NCBI GenBank assembly: GCA_017526785.1
Contig: JAFXQV010000031.1
Span: forward strand, 124,899-188,898
DNA: 64,000 nt
Direction: 5' to 3'
Origin: Oscillibacter sp.
Lineage (GTDB): Bacteria > Bacillota > Clostridia > Oscillospirales > Oscillospiraceae
Shown here: piece by piece, positions 4,431 through 60,652 of the stretch
Numbering within the stretch: position 1 is the first letter of the stretch
Layout of the letters: each line of letters begins with the position of its first letter
Made by a program: the position numbers and the translations under genes
The notes under the pieces: generated by a model
The model's database searches: none
Told to the model about the DNA's origin: nothing
Seen by the model: the letters and a program-made list of their open reading frames with translations, nothing else

Positions 4431-4600
4431 GGAATTTCTGGATAACGCATGGATTTTCGTGTATTTGCACAATTTCCACGGCGTTTTTCCGACGTTTCCA
4501 CAATATCCGTACATTCTGTGGAAAACGTTCCGGCGGCGCGCAATCCAGTAAACATGCGACATTGGAAACCTTGGCGCATTCCGGAAGCGTACAGGCCTGA

Positions 4601-4644
4601 TAAAAACAAAAAGACGGCGCAATCCATTTCAAATTGCGCCGTCT
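4601..4644 (-). terminator. Rho-independent terminator after the PBECR-like gene
   Basis: A perfect 12-base-pair stem (arms 4612-4623 and 4633-4644, 9-base loop) is followed on the minus strand by TTTTTGTTTTTA. It lies 15 bases after the stop codon of the nuclease-like gene and separates that unit from the ATPase promoter. Confidence 0.9.
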
Positions 4645-4658
4645 ACGTAAGGAGTTTT

Positions 4659-5042
4659 TTAATAATGTTTTCGATTCTTAACCATACGCCGATATTCTTT
4701 TTCATGGATATGCCAGAATGTCATAATAGAATTGCGATATTCTGGAGGGAGTTCCGGCGTACGCAAACGTAAGACGAGGTTAAAATGCAACATTTCATTA
4801 TCGGCGGGAAATGCCTTGAGAAGATTTACAGTGTTGTGCGGATGGTCTCTATCTTCCAAAATATGTGCCGGATTAGATAAAATATCAGGAATAAATTCCT
4901 GATAAGCGTCAAAATCACCATGATGTCTTTTATTGATGTGAGCTATCCGCTCTTTGGTAATAATTACCTCGTCTGTATCAAGATTTGCCACAACCATTTG
5001 AAATCGCTCGACTTGGATTTTCCCCATTGTGAATACGGTCAT
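4659..5042 (-). CDS. PBECR-like nuclease-domain protein
   Basis: A 127-residue protein resembling the PBECR group (phage Barnase-EndoU-ColicinE5/D-RelE-like nucleases), small RNases found as toxins or phage and mobile-element effectors. Supporting segments are VIITKERIAHINKRHHGDF (about residues 27-45) with clustered histidines, ILSNPAHILEDRDHPH, LVLRLRTPE, and the terminal SIMTFWHIHEKEYRRMVKN. The start is ATG at 5040-5042, with AAGGAG eight bases upstream; an in-frame GTG three codons earlier overlaps that site. The gene is AT-richer than its neighbours, suggesting transfer. Upstream on the same strand lie a consensus promoter, a structured RNA and a terminator, so its expression probably depends on read-through. 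The family call is from memory of motifs. Confidence 0.62.
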   Translation of the reverse strand: MTVFTMGKIQVERFQMVVANLDTDEVIITKERIAHINKRHHGDFDAYQEFIPDILSNPAHILEDRDHPHNTVNLLKAFPADNEMLHFNLVLRLRTPELPPEYRNSIMTFWHIHEKEYRRMVKNRKHY

Positions 5043-5120
5043 GAAAATCACTCCTTCATTTTTGTTCAGTTGTCAAGGTACACATTCCACTCGGAAAATT
5101 CCGGGCGTTTCAGTGTTAGG

Positions 5121-5179
5121 GAAAAAGACCTCTTCTGAATACCTCCATGTAAACCATCATTCAGGTGTTGAATAGGTCT
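5121..5179 (-). terminator. Terminator between structured RNA and PBECR-like gene
   Basis: On the minus strand AGACCT (5174-5179) pairs with AGGTCT (5126-5131), and the nested CTGAAT (5159-5164) pairs with ATTCAG (5135-5140), followed by five T residues (5122-5126). An alternative small hairpin, ATTCA with TGAAT, uses part of the same 5' arm, so a competing fold that weakens the terminator is possible. The nuclease start lies about 80 bases downstream. Confidence 0.65.
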
Positions 5180-5301
5180 AAATAAAGGGAGCTTTGGCGG
5201 GCGTCCCCGTCTCCCGCATCTCTCAGGGTTTCCCCTTGTCATTACCAGCGGCGCGTGGTTGGGACGAAATTTACCACCTCAAAGCTCCCATTCATTTAAC
5301 A
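5121..5301 (-). ncRNA. Candidate structured RNA before the PBECR-like gene
   Basis: A transcript from the promoter at 5308-5336 would start near 5301. Its first segment, 5289 to 5187, is closed by a perfect 9-base-pair stem (GGGAGCTTT with AAAGCTCCC). Inside are at least three helices: GTGGT/ACCAC (5273-5277 with 5255-5259), an AGGG/CCCT stem capped by GAAA (5225-5236), and GCGGG/CCCGC (5213-5217 with 5197-5201). The GNRA-type GAAA loop exists only in minus-strand RNA, which supports this strand. A terminator at 5121-5179 ends it, giving about 180 bases. I do not recognise the family. It could be an RNA antitoxin, a riboswitch-like leader or an independent small RNA. Confidence 0.6.
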
Positions 5302-5307
5302 TAAACG

Positions 5308-5336
5308 ATTATAGCGCAAATATTCCTGCTTGTCAA
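5308..5336 (-). promoter_or_regulatory. Perfect consensus sigma-A promoter
   Basis: On the minus strand TTGACA (5331-5336), a 17-base spacer and TATAAT (5308-5313) match the consensus at all 12 positions. It would transcribe the structured RNA at 5301-5121 and, on read-through, the nuclease-like gene. The remaining plus-strand gap to 5420 holds only weak promoter-like sequence. Confidence 0.9.
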
Positions 5337-5420
5337 GAAATTTTTTGAGTTGATGATAAATATCTTGTAATTTGCCCTTTGATATGCCATGATGAACGCG
5401 AAGAAAGCGGGGTGGCGTGC

Positions 5421-5678
5421 ATGTTACAGCCGAAACTTGTCAGCGTGACGGCGGCGGAGCCGTTGACACTGCGCCTTGTATACGAGACCGGGGAGGTGAA
5501 ACTGTTCGACGTGTCGCCGTACGCCCGCGGCTCGTGGTACGGAGAGTTGAGAGACCCGGACTATTTCCGTACGGTACACCTTATCGGCGGCGGCACGGGT
5601 ATCGAGTGGGAACACGGGCAGGACATCGCGCCGCATGAACTCTATGAATTAAGCCGCGTCGGCGTATCGGACGCGTGA
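5421..5678 (+). CDS. DUF2442-family protein
   Basis: An 85-residue protein of the DUF2442 type, small proteins of unknown biochemical role often found near DUF4160 or other toxin-antitoxin-like genes. The pattern is typical: an N-terminal strand pair (LTLRLVYETGEVKLFDV), then Y-A-R-G-S-W-Y-G-EL, and a terminal IEWEHGQDIAPHELYEL. I chose ATG at 5421, preceded by GGGGTGG; in-frame GTG at 5412 and TTG at 5379 are possible but the conserved part begins at the ATG. It overlaps by four bases an upstream extension of the next frame. No DUF4160 partner is visible. Confidence 0.72.
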   Translation: MLQPKLVSVTAAEPLTLRLVYETGEVKLFDVSPYARGSWYGELRDPDYFRTVHLIGGGTGIEWEHGQDIAPHELYELSRVGVSDA

Positions 5679-5734
5679 AAACGGGCATACTGTGGGAGCG
5701 TCCCCGCGCGGGGACAGATTGGAGGTTTCCCATT

Positions 5735-5953
5735 ATGCTGGATAAACTCGCCATGACGCTGGCCATTATCGGCGCGTTAAACTGGGGCAGTATCGGGCTG
5801 TTTGGTTTCGACGCGGTAGGCTTCCTCTTTGGCGGACAGATGGCGGCGCTCTCCCGCGTGGTCTTCACGCTGGTTGGCCTCGCGGGGCTGTGGTGCATTA
5901 TGCTCCTGTTCCGCGACAGCGAGTCGCCGGAGGCACACCCCCATATGGCGTAA
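5735..5953 (+). CDS. DUF378 (YuzA-like) small membrane protein
   Basis: A 72-residue two-helix membrane protein. The N-terminal MLDKLAMTLAIIGALNWGSIGLFGFDAV is the hallmark of DUF378, seen in Bacillus YuzA. The second helix is VVFTLVGLAGLWCIMLLF. The start is ATG 5735, with GGAGG at 5721-5725; the longer frame upstream lacks a ribosome site and the family motif. The function of the family is unknown. A strong terminator follows immediately. Confidence 0.85.
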   Translation: MLDKLAMTLAIIGALNWGSIGLFGFDAVGFLFGGQMAALSRVVFTLVGLAGLWCIMLLFRDSESPEAHPHMA

Positions 5954-30146: not shown

Positions 30147-30246
30147 CCACGCAACACAGAAATGAGGTGATGTTAAGCAATCAAAAACATGAACAAATGT
30201 GGGCTTAAATATTCAGGTGTATTCACTAATAATGGAGGTGAAAGAC

Positions 30247-31410
30247 TTGTTAAAGAGCCTGAAAACAGAGATTAAGCCCACGCCGGAACAGCGCCTCACT
30301 CTGTTAAAGGCAATCGGGACTTGCAGATTTGTCTACAACCTGTTTTTATCGGAAGCGGATAAACGTTATCGGAACGGACAGCGGTATATGTCGGCTTACG
30401 ATTTCTCCGTATGGCTGAATCACGAGTATCTTTCCGAAAACTCGGATAAGCTATGGATTAAAGAAACGAACGCCAAAGCGGTAAAACAGGCAATAATTAA
30501 CGCAAATTCGGCGTATCAGCGCTTCTTCAAGGGGCTTGCCGCTCATCCGAACTTCAAGAAGAAAGGCGTCAATGAACCGTCTTACTACTTTGTAAGAAAC
30601 GGCGCGAAACAGCCAATTGTCTGCGAACGGCACAAAATCAAAGTGCCCGGCCTTGGATGGGTCGCGCTGAAAGAGTACGGATACTTTCCAACGGAAGCAA
30701 ATGTCATTCATTCCGGCAGTATTTCTCTCCACGCGGGACGTTTTTTCTGCTCCGTACTGGTGGAAATCCCAGACCCGGAATCCGTGAAACCGAAAACAAA
30801 GGGAATCGGCGTGGATTTGGGAATTAAGTCTTTCGCGGTTGTCAGTGACGGGCGGGAATTTCCCAACATCAATCACACACGCAAAGTCCGAAAACTGGAA
30901 AAGAAGCTCAAACGGGAACAGCGGAGGCTTTCGAGAAAACGCGAAAGTCAAAAGAAAAATTCTAAGAAAGGAAATGATTCAAGCAAACGGTATCAAAACC
31001 AGCGGTTGAAAGTTCAAAAACTCTATTATCGCCTTGACTGTATCCGTAAGGATTATCTGCGGCAGACAGTTGCCGCTCTGGTGAAAGCCAAGCCGGAGTT
31101 TATAGCGGTTGAGGATTTGAACGTATCGGGTATGATGAAGAACCGCCATTTGTCAAAAGCGGTGGCGCAACAGAATTTCTATGGATTCCGCGATTTTCTT
31201 ACATGGAAATGCAAGCTCCACGGGATTCCGCTCCGCATTGTTGACAGATGGTGTCCAAGCTCAAAAACCTGCCATTTCTGCGGAACACTGAAAGCGGACT
31301 TGAAACTGTCTGAACGCTCTTATGTCTGCGAATATTGTGGGAAACTGATTGACAGGGACTTGAACGCGGCTTTGAACATACGCGATACGACGCAGTACGT
31401 TTTCGCTTAG
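30247..31410 (+). CDS. tnpB: TnpB RNA-guided nuclease (IS200/IS605, OrfB type)
   Basis: Transposon-encoded RuvC nuclease, the ancestor group of Cas12. It has 387 residues from TTG 30247, which follows GGAGGTGAAAGAC. The catalytic triad is intact: D190 (GVDLGIKSF), E289 (AVEDLNVSG) and D371 (DRDLNAALN). The zinc ribbon has C342/C345 and C361/C364. Codon use and AT content differ clearly from the flagellar genes. No tnpA is present, so this is a solitary (IS1341-type) element. It sits between flgG and cheC. Confidence 0.95.
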   Translation: MLKSLKTEIKPTPEQRLTLLKAIGTCRFVYNLFLSEADKRYRNGQRYMSAYDFSVWLNHEYLSENSDKLWIKETNAKAVKQAIINANSAYQRFFKGLAAHPNFKKKGVNEPSYYFVRNGAKQPIVCERHKIKVPGLGWVALKEYGYFPTEANVIHSGSISLHAGRFFCSVLVEIPDPESVKPKTKGIGVDLGIKSFAVVSDGREFPNINHTRKVRKLEKKLKREQRRLSRKRESQKKNSKKGNDSSKRYQNQRLKVQKLYYRLDCIRKDYLRQTVAALVKAKPEFIAVEDLNVSGMMKNRHLSKAVAQQNFYGFRDFLTWKCKLHGIPLRIVDRWCPSSKTCHFCGTLKADLKLSERSYVCEYCGKLIDRDLNAALNIRDTTQYVFA

Positions 31411-31525
31411 TACCGATGGATTGTCGGGAATTTACGCCCGTGGACTGTTACACAAACCGGACTACTGTGAAGGCGACTTTCGGGAAACGGGACAGGTTTG
31501 AAGCGGGAAAAAGCAAAAACGTATT
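31411..31525 (+). ncRNA. Putative omega RNA / right-end region of the TnpB element
   Basis: TnpB guide RNAs derive from the 3' end of the gene and the right end of the element. This segment folds: AAACC with GGTTT, and CTGT with ACAG, enclose a GGCGACTTTCGGGAAACGGG segment (about 31455-31500), then GAAGCGGG. It carries no open frame of note. The true end of the element and the guide start cannot be fixed without comparison to other copies. Confidence 0.55.
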
Positions 31526-59202: not shown

Positions 59203-59488
59203 ACAGGTGTCTGTCTGTAAAGGGGTCTCCCCTTTGCGATATATTCCCCGGCGGCGTCCACTCCACTTTTCTGGATTCCGGACGGGAAACAAGGAGGAAA
59301 TCGGATTTCCGCAAGGCTCGCGGTGCGGCAGTGTGGAGACCTGTCGTAATGCGGCGCGTTCTGAGGGCAAATCACGGTTCGGAAGCCCCGGAAACATTCG
59401 GGGCAAATGCCAGCCGGACGGCGCTTTGTTCCGATACGGACGCCCGCGAGGGTAACGGGCGGAGGCGCGTTATTCAGAGCCGGCAAGC

Positions 59489-60652
59489 ATGGCAGAGGTA
59501 TTGATTCAAAATCTCAAAAAGGTCTACGACAACAAGGTGACGGCCGTCCATGACGTGAACCTGCACATCAAAGACAAGGAATTTATCGTGTTAGTCGGCC
59601 CGTCGGGCTGCGGCAAGTCCACCACGCTCCGCATGGTCGCGGGTCTGGAGGACATCTCCGGCGGCGAGCTCTACATCGACGGCAAACTCTGCAACGACAT
59701 CGCCCCCAAAGACCGGGATATCGCAATGGTGTTCCAGAACTACGCCCTGTATCCCCATATGTCCGTCTACGACAATATGGCCTTCGCGCTCAAACTCAAA
59801 AAGACGCCCAAGGACGTTATCGACAAGAAAGTGCGGGAAGTCGCCGCGATTCTGGACATCACGCAGTATCTCGAACGCAAGCCCAAGGCGCTCTCCGGCG
59901 GCCAGCGTCAGCGCGTGGCCATTGGCCGCGCCATGGTGCGTGACCCCAAAGTGTTCCTGATGGACGAACCGCTCTCGAACCTCGACGCGAAGCTCCGCAA
60001 CCAGATGCGCGCCGAAATTATCAAGCTCCGCCAGAGAATCAACACTACGTTTATGTACGTAACCCACGACCAGACGGAGGCCATGACGCTTGGTGACAGA
60101 ATCGTTATCATGAAAGACGGCTTTGTCAACCAGATTGGCGCGCCGCAGGATTTGTTCAACTGCCCGGTGAACCTGTTCGTCGCGGGCTTTATCGGCATGC
60201 CCGTCATGAACTTCTTTGACAACAGCAAGCTGTTACTCGAAAACGGCGTCTACTACGCGCAGGTCAAGGGCGCGAAGTTCAAACTCGACAGTTTCCAGCA
60301 GGCTGCGCTTAAACAGAACAATCAACAGCCGTGCGACATCGTGGTGGGCATTCGTCCCCAGCACCTGTCCGTCGGGGAAGGCGAACTGCAGGGCAAGATT
60401 GAAGTGTCCGAAATGCTCGGCTCCGAAGTCAACCTCCACGCCGATTGTCAGGGCGATGAAGTCGTCATGGTCATTCCGACGATGGGACTTAACGAGGATG
60501 TGTCCGTGGGCAGTACGGTCAAGTTCAACGCCCCGCCGCTGACTATGCAGCTCTTCGACAAGGCTACCTCTAACAACCTGCTCTGGTTCGATGAGAAGTC
60601 TTTCAAGGAAAACGCCCCGGTCTGCAAGACCTACGACGGCCTGAAAAAGTAA
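59489..60652 (+). CDS. ABC transporter ATPase, MsmK/UgpC (sugar) type
   Basis: ATP-binding subunit that probably energises sugar or glycerol-phosphate importers. It has 387 residues. Walker A is GPSGCGKST (about 38-46), Q-loop [20 protein letters not shown], signature LSGGQRQR (about 135-142), Walker [17 protein letters not shown], switch [11 protein letters not shown]-terminal TOBE regulatory domain spans about 235-370. No permease or binding-protein genes are adjacent, as is usual for shared ATPases of this type. Confidence 0.92.

What the first reader, a model, noticed from the sequence alone, without database searches (positions are those of the whole stretch)
4601..5336. RNA-terminator-nuclease unit resembling a type III toxin-antitoxin layout with a non-ToxN toxin
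On the minus strand the order is: perfect TTGACA-17-TATAAT promoter (5308-5336), a compact multi-helix RNA closed by a 9-base-pair stem (5187-5289), a terminator (5121-5179), a ribosome site, a 127-residue PBECR-like nuclease-fold gene (4659-5042) and a strong final terminator (4601-4644). Type III systems (ToxIN, CptIN, TenpIN) use exactly this promoter, RNA, leaky terminator, toxin order, but their RNAs are tandem repeats and their toxins are ToxN-fold. Here the RNA is a single four-helix element and the protein looks PBECR-like. A riboswitch-like leader or an unrelated small RNA is the main alternative. The unit is AT-richer than its surroundings, fitting transfer.
Basis: partly seen in the sequence, partly recalled or inferred. 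Interest (0 to 1): 0.85.

Follow-up and report, generated by a model that had tools for sequence, protein, structure and literature searches.

The report
Orphan RNA paired with phage RNase
A small structured RNA of unknown purpose sits beside one family of predicted phage-type RNA-cutting enzymes so regularly that it is probably the antidote to that enzyme.

Summary
The RNA (5189-5287, minus) is Rfam RF02924 "skipping-rope", an orphan family with a known pseudoknot; the protein (4662-5042) is a PBECR2/3 predicted RNase. Their pairing is general: in 295 genomes of the order all 13 small PBECR3 frames and 17 of 18 PBECR2 matches have the RNA beside them (the 18th is at a contig end); so do 79 of 79 fetched relatives in named genomes and 28 of 30 in viral contigs. 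The usual layout reverses the window's: gene, then a near-consensus promoter overlapping the gene's end, then the RNA. In phages PBECR is often the tail of the MuF head protein. The window was the only intact locus seen with the RNA on the 5' side alone, a ToxIN-like order. Small intact genes without a nearby RNA were not seen in these sets, except where an IS or contig end intervened; RNAs without the gene are common (28 of 59). In tandem RNAs the gene-proximal one usually matches the toxin's subtype. Best reading: an RNA antitoxin (immunity RNA) for an RNase, working like type III but with a different toxin, mostly one RNA copy and usually another order. Toxicity and binding are untested; no structure prediction ran.

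The parts
5308..5336 (-). sigma-70 type promoter, TTGACA-17-TATAAT
   Evidence: 12 of 12 consensus positions
5187..5289 (-). skipping-rope RNA (Rfam match 5189-5287; closing stem reaches 5187 and 5289)
   Evidence: RF02924, 52.5 bits; covariation of the family
5261..5266 (-). 5' arm of the pseudoknot, CGUCCC
   Evidence: pairs with 5202-5207; all six pairs in 56 of 56 aligned RNAs
5202..5207 (-). 3' arm of the pseudoknot, GGGACG
5122..5179 (-). terminator-like hairpin with T-run between RNA and gene
   Evidence: fold and sequence; not listed by the scan
5051..5056 (-). ribosome binding site AAGGAG
   Evidence: sequence
4659..5042 (-). PBECR-family predicted RNase, 127 aa (stop included in coordinates)
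   Evidence: Pfam PF18812 and PF18810, phrog_29609
4612..4644 (-). intrinsic terminator after the gene
   Evidence: 15-pair stem and T-rich tail

Best explanation
A toxin/antitoxin (toxin/immunity) module. The PBECR protein is a BECR-fold RNase; the skipping-rope RNA is a pseudoknotted RNA made from a strong promoter that binds its cognate RNase and blocks it, acting like a type III antitoxin. In the window one promoter makes the RNA, most transcripts stop at the terminator, and read-through supplies a little RNase. In most relatives the gene comes first, standalone or as the C-terminal domain of the phage head protein MuF, and the RNA is transcribed from its own promoter overlapping the gene's last codons. 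Shown: pairing, anatomy, RNA structure, phage context, asymmetry of loss. Inferred: RNase activity, toxicity, direct binding, neutralisation, read-through.
For: RNA beside 13 of 13 small PBECR3 frames and 17 of 18 PBECR2 places in 295 genomes; downstream of 79 of 79 and 28 of 30 loci. Against this, 28 of 59 RNAs have no PBECR match within 1.5 kb and 5 have only fragments: the RNA outlives the gene. Position varies: 3' same strand, 5' (window), convergent (L062), so the RNA product rather than its place seems to matter. A promoter-like site scoring 10 or more of 12 precedes 104 of 107 RNAs against 17 of 1070 random windows. Where an IS separates gene and RNA the RNA promoter stretch is present on the RNA side (L173). 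RNA helices and pseudoknot covary. In 11 tandem loci the proximal RNA fits the toxin subtype better in 10. No antisense preference. No other recurrent small gene behind the toxin. Precedent: RCd22, carrying the Rfam abiF motif, neutralises AbiF by binding it (PMC12373285, abstract and passages).
Against: No toxicity, RNase or binding data. About half of the RNAs stand alone, which an independent sRNA would also give. Of those lone RNAs only 11 of 28 have a promoter score of 10 or more, against 26 of 31 with PBECR, so some lone RNAs may be dead relics. Large PBECR proteins lack the RNA (0 of 13 loci) and so either need no antidote or use another. The catalytic-type His is not universal: L063 and L066, both RNA-adjacent, have Tyr there, and a simple H[IML]xx[RKH][HR] motif is in 96 of 107. 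Co-inheritance of tightly linked parts explains part of the RNA-protein correlation. MuF toxins are reported to be followed mostly by small ORFs thought to encode immunity proteins (PMC5576092, passages).
Confidence: 0.66

Rival explanations
1. The RNA is a cofactor, substrate or guide of the PBECR enzyme: together they form an active ribonucleoprotein rather than an inhibited one.
For: The pairing and subtype matching would look the same; ToxN processes its own antitoxin (PMC4627078, passages).
Against: An RNA needed only as cofactor should vanish with the gene, yet 28 of 59 RNAs stand without it. Large PBECR proteins do without it.
Confidence: 0.14
2. The RNA is an independent small RNA of phages and hosts that regulates other genes and travels with the PBECR gene by linkage.
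For: Rfam types it as sRNA; skipping-rope RNAs are among phage ncRNAs in one survey (PMC8501573, one passage); many RNAs lack the gene.
Against: Near-perfect presence at small PBECR genes over 70 clusters at 80% protein identity, in chromosomes, phages and Fusobacterium plasmids, and cognate matching of the proximal RNA.
Confidence: 0.12
3. In the window the RNA is a cis-acting leader (riboswitch or attenuator) of the gene behind it.
For: RNA, terminator-like hairpin, then gene.
Against: In relatives the RNA lies downstream or convergent and cannot be that gene's leader. It may attenuate in addition: RCd22 acts in cis and in trans (PMC12373285, passages).
Confidence: 0.03
4. The RNA is a type I antisense antitoxin that pairs with the PBECR mRNA.
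For: Type I antitoxins are small RNAs with their own promoters (general knowledge).
Against: Same strand and non-overlapping in nearly all loci; cognate RNA:mRNA-start pairing is no better than non-cognate (mean rank 0.52 of 60 tested from 99 unique pairs).
Confidence: 0.02
5. The stretch encodes a small immunity protein rather than an RNA.
For: A sense frame is open through the RNA in 79 of 107 RNAs, and translated RNA stretches cluster in 57 of 103 loci.
Against: The clustered frames differ and have no common start; RNA lengths differ by non-multiples of three; the window's RNA is closed in the two frames seen open elsewhere (read by eye); helices change on both sides.
Confidence: 0.03

Closest known systems
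Type III toxin-antitoxin systems ToxIN and CptIN (PMC4627078, passages; PMC5772629, listing)
   Same: RNase-type toxin, pseudoknotted RNA; in the window also the order promoter, RNA, terminator, toxin
   Different: PBECR instead of the ToxN fold; RNA of about 80-115 nt, mostly single, with another architecture; usually gene first and a separate RNA promoter; binding untested
AbiF-RCd22 of a Clostridioides difficile prophage (PMC12373285, abstract and passages)
   Same: An Rfam orphan motif (RF03085) next to a phage-borne toxin that proved to be its RNA antitoxin
   Different: Abi_2/HEPN-type protein (the HEPN label is recalled), two small hairpin motifs, RNA upstream
MuF polymorphic toxins (PMC5576092, passages)
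   Same: C-terminal toxin domain on the phage MuF protein, next to the portal gene; immunity element directly downstream
   Different: There the immunity elements were taken to be small proteins; here the element is an RNA. The window's own gene is standalone
AvcID (PMC10511110, search listing only)
   Same: Type III-style RNA antitoxin with a non-ToxN toxin
   Different: The toxin is a deoxycytidylate deaminase
Skipping-rope RNA, RF02924 (PMC7779021, one figure legend passage)
   Same: The window RNA is a member; the pseudoknot was already known
   Different: No function or partner gene was given in what I could read
PBECR domains (PMC5512222, passages)
   Same: The protein is a member with His and Ser kept
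   Different: The passages seen discuss polyvalent, MuF and solo forms and mention no associated RNA

Membership tests
Rfam RF02924 skipping-rope | Score above the family's gathering threshold over the full model | tested here: met
   52.5 against 36.7 bits, model 1-80 of 80
PBECR nuclease family (Pfam) | Score above the curated cut-off | tested here: met
   PBECR3 36.9/30, PBECR2 27.2/27.1
[quoted passage not shown]
   His35 and Ser105 of the window protein invariant in the 37 rows of A7; A7 leaves out the three most divergent rows of A1
PBECR nuclease family (Pfam) | BECR fold | not tested
   Structure prediction never accepted (13 calls, machine busy); no solved relative by sequence
Type III toxin-antitoxin system | RNA antitoxin neutralises the protein toxin by direct binding | not testable with these tools
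   Needs experiment
Type III toxin-antitoxin system | Toxin of the ToxN/CptN/TenpN fold family | tested here: not met
   Only PBECR models match in Pfam, by sequence; fold itself not compared
Type III toxin-antitoxin system | Antitoxin RNA in tandem repeats (called a key feature in PMC12373285, passages) | tested here: not met
   One copy in the window, none other even with filters off; more than one RNA in 12 of 79 and 4 of 30 fetched loci, often of different subtypes
Type III toxin-antitoxin system | Order promoter, RNA, terminator, toxin | tested here: met
   Met in the window; not met in the relatives, where the gene comes first
Type III toxin-antitoxin system | Pseudoknotted antitoxin RNA | tested here: met
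   Six pairs in 56 of 56; not the small H-type fold described for CptI
Type I toxin-antitoxin system | RNA antisense to the toxin mRNA | tested here: not met
   Same strand, and no cognate preference
MuF polymorphic toxin | MuF domain plus C-terminal toxin domain, next to the portal gene | tested here: not met
   Not met by the window's standalone gene; met by relatives: PF04233 plus PBECR2 in L070, PF04233 in L010, portal-MuF-PBECR order in L194

The most novel reading that the evidence does not exclude
Skipping-rope RNAs are immunity RNAs against RNase effectors that temperate phages carry on their MuF head protein and deliver on infection. Each RNA subtype neutralises its own PBECR subtype; lone and tandem RNAs in bacterial genomes are stockpiled antidotes against foreign phages: a polymorphic-toxin immunity system whose immunity determinant is RNA rather than protein.
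Probability: 0.42. Interest if true: 0.92.

Novelty: new variant of a known kind. Interest (0 to 1): 0.82.

Why it matters
It would give a partner and a likely function to an orphan Rfam family, add to the few RNA-antitoxin systems whose toxin is not of the ToxN kind, and explain how phages with MuF-PBECR RNases avoid poisoning their own lysogens. The prediction (cognate RNA rescues, non-cognate does not) can be tested with two plasmids.

Tried and rejected
Riboswitch or leader as the general role: the RNA is downstream or convergent in relatives. Antisense type I: no cognate preference (the absolute energies there look too strong to be taken literally, only ranks are used). Chance neighbourhood: against it stand the Pfam-seeded counts. 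A small immunity protein behind the toxin: in 103 loci with room, the only cluster of small ORFs present in more than 4 loci is made of translations of the RNA stretch itself in differing frames. The window protein alone found nothing in viral contigs, one phage record and no plasmid. No solved relative (best E 0.23, a ribosomal protein). PADLOC gave only an E 0.028 match to WH_III-A over residues 2-38, taken as chance. NCBIfam gave nothing. Empty site: in G695 and G689 similarity ends near window 4506 and 4503, and in four same-genus genomes nothing matches the gene or the RNA (one 48-base match at window 4572-4619 in G695), but the flanks there are rearranged, so no clean empty site was shown. 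Structure prediction could not be run.

Full report
WHAT IS THERE. On the minus strand a consensus promoter (5336-5308) precedes a structured RNA, a terminator-like hairpin, a ribosome site, a 127-codon gene and a terminator. The RNA is Rfam RF02924, skipping-rope (52.5 bits against 36.7), one copy in the genome. The protein matches PBECR3 and, just at the cut-off, PBECR2, and phrog_29609. The unit is A+T-rich, lies between V-ATPase-like genes and DUF2442/DUF378/flagellar genes (the flagellar and V-ATPase names rest partly on reading the ORFs), and its RNA and gene have no match in four same-genus genomes. It looks accessory and acquired, though no clean empty site was found.

THE RNA SIDE. 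RF02924 was sought in 295 genomes of the order (27 hit) and 398 of the phylum (28 hit; the window's genome is in both). Of 68 distinct places 59 became loci; two of the 59 (L028, L085) score just under the Rfam cut-off. A PBECR profile grown from five seeds hits 31 of 59 within 1.5 kb at E < 1e-3. By my reading 26 of these are intact: 24 with the gene upstream on the same strand, one downstream (the window), one convergent (L062). Five are fragments. Twenty-eight have none; for one of these (G661) a PBECR frame lies 1.8 kb off with a transposase-like ORF between. A relic of the gene's last codons was flagged in 3 of 28 (L019, L027 and, less clearly, L068). Promoter scores of 10 or more of 12 precede 26 of 31 RNAs with PBECR and 11 of 28 without.

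THE PROTEIN SIDE. In the same 295 genomes PF18812 gave 27 places. All 13 in small frames (118-167 aa) have the RNA beside them. Of the 14 in frames of 304 aa or more, 13 loci were scanned and none has it (flanks of 1.5 kb may not reach the ends of the largest frames). PF18810 gave 18 places; comparing coordinates have the RNA, and the last is at a contig end. The window protein in 398 genomes gave 7 places: 6 with an adjacent RNA, counting the window and one truncated frame (G564), and G661.

With a closer alignment as query, 79 named-genome loci (the best 80 of 196 relatives were kept) and 30 viral loci were fetched. My covariance model R1 finds the RNA downstream in 79 of 79, starting 32-53 nt past the protein match, and in 28 of 30. 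The two exceptions are a contig end (L196) and an insertion: in L173 a 623-aa transposase-like ORF lies between gene and RNA, and a stretch of over 60 bases with the RNA's promoter is present on both sides. Caveats: the query was seeded from RNA-adjacent proteins, some of these loci also fed R1, and relatives share descent, though the 99 unique pairs still fall into 70 clusters at 80% protein identity. Rfam's own model found the RNA in 8 of 9 loci given to it; the ninth, L223, is the G661 case.

ANATOMY OF THE COMMON FORM. In 107 pairs the RNA starts a median of about 31 nt after the stop codon; the -35 is TTTACA in 101, the spacer 17 in 106, the -10 TATAAT in 73, and the -35 begins before the end of the stop codon in 105 of 107. 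Promoter scores of 10 or more of 12 occur in 104 of 107 against 17 of 1070 random windows from the same loci. Gene lengths are bimodal: at most 180 aa in 59 of 79 genome loci and 5 of 28 viral loci, 390 aa or more in 13 of 79 and 22 of 28. Of three longer proteins given to Pfam two carry Phage_Mu_F, one of them with PBECR2 above its cut-off; the third (L009, 255-aa frame) has only a PBECR2 match below cut-off. In L194 the order is terminase, portal, minor head protein ending in phrog_29609, RNA, scaffold, major head protein. The pairing also occurs in a human faecal phage record and in two Fusobacterium plasmids whose record says 'PBECR2 nuclease fold domain-containing protein', there 116 nt after the gene: another phylum.

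THE RNA'S SHAPE. In 56 aligned RNAs of one subtype, window included, 99.3% of cells pair, 19 of 25 pairs have changes on both sides, 0 of 500 shuffles reach any of the measures, and slid controls pair in 30-43% of cells. The pseudoknot forms all six pairs in 56 of 56 with 12 sequence combinations; shuffled rows average 78%. The pseudoknot itself is not new: the Rfam 14 paper shows it (PMC7779021, figure legend).

COGNATE PAIRING. Protein and RNA distances correlate: r 0.40 over 99 unique pairs, r 0.31 over 70 representatives with 0 of 5000 permutations as high. Linkage explains part of that. In 11 loci with two RNAs within 400 nt behind one gene, the proximal RNA resembles the RNAs of the three nearest toxins more than the distal one does in 10 of 11; L149 goes the other way, L099 and L187 are near ties, and L139 and L174 are near-duplicates. 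RNA and mRNA start show no cognate preference. No other recurrent small ORF lies behind the gene; a sense frame is open through 79 of 107 RNAs, but in differing frames.

HOW IT MOST LIKELY WORKS. A small gene family not seen intact without a nearby RNA in these sets, an RNA often seen without the gene, indifference to relative position, a strong separate promoter and subtype matching together look like a toxin with an antidote acting in trans. As the product is a structured RNA without antisense match, binding the protein is the likeliest action, as RCd22 does for AbiF (PMC12373285, abstract and passages) and ToxI and CptI do for their toxins (PMC4627078, passages). MuF toxins are hypothesised to be loaded in the head and delivered with the DNA (PMC5576092, passages), so the RNA would protect the lysogen and lone RNAs would protect bystanders. 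In the window the RNA is first and no second RNA lies behind the gene, so expression of the gene probably rests on read-through. Against the reading: no functional data; lone RNAs with poor promoters; large PBECR proteins without the RNA; Tyr in place of the His in L063 and L066; and the reported small ORFs behind most MuF toxins.

MEMBERSHIP. The parts belong to RF02924 and PBECR. The system works like a type III toxin-antitoxin system but is not filed as one: the toxin family and the repeats are not met, the usual order of relatives differs, and binding is untested.

NOVELTY. Searches for skipping-rope, PBECR, the 224-RNA title, MuF polymorphic toxins, type III antitoxins, combined names, abiF-type RNAs, RNA antitoxin with polymorphic toxin and structured RNA with toxin-antitoxin listed no paper that I could see linking this RNA to PBECR; only listings and the passages named were read. 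One survey lists skipping-rope RNAs among phage ncRNAs (PMC8501573, passage). The 2017 paper that I recall as introducing skipping-rope RNA is not held, so I cannot say whether it noted the neighbour.

Noticed in passing
window 31437-31509 (+): RAGATH-18 RNA (RF03064, 47.1 against 44.9 bits) 26 bases after the end of a 403-aa ORF (30199-31410) that reads like a TnpB/OrfB transposon protein (name by eye, no family search).
   Followed up: partly
window 59243-59494 (+): malK-I RNA (RF03069, 115.3 bits), a known cis-regulatory family.
   Followed up: no
window 5379-5953 (+): DUF2442 and DUF378 genes between the unit and the flagellar genes; in the same-genus genome G695 matches to this stretch lie on two other contigs.
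   Followed up: no
L173 6370-8640: Transposase-like ORF (623 aa) inserted between a MuF-PBECR gene and its RNA, with over 60 bases repeated on both sides, which leaves the RNA with its promoter.
   Followed up: partly
L228 (G001:C7) 644-2345 and L229 (G280:C25) 600-796: Tandem skipping-rope RNAs of different subtypes; G001 carries only PBECR fragments nearby and none was found by G280's pair: possible stocks of lone antidote RNAs.
   Followed up: partly
   Followed up: partly
L217 2932-3489 and L218 (Fusobacterium plasmids): The PBECR2 gene and RNA lie on small plasmids of about 10.6 and 10.8 kb, 116 nt apart.
   Followed up: partly
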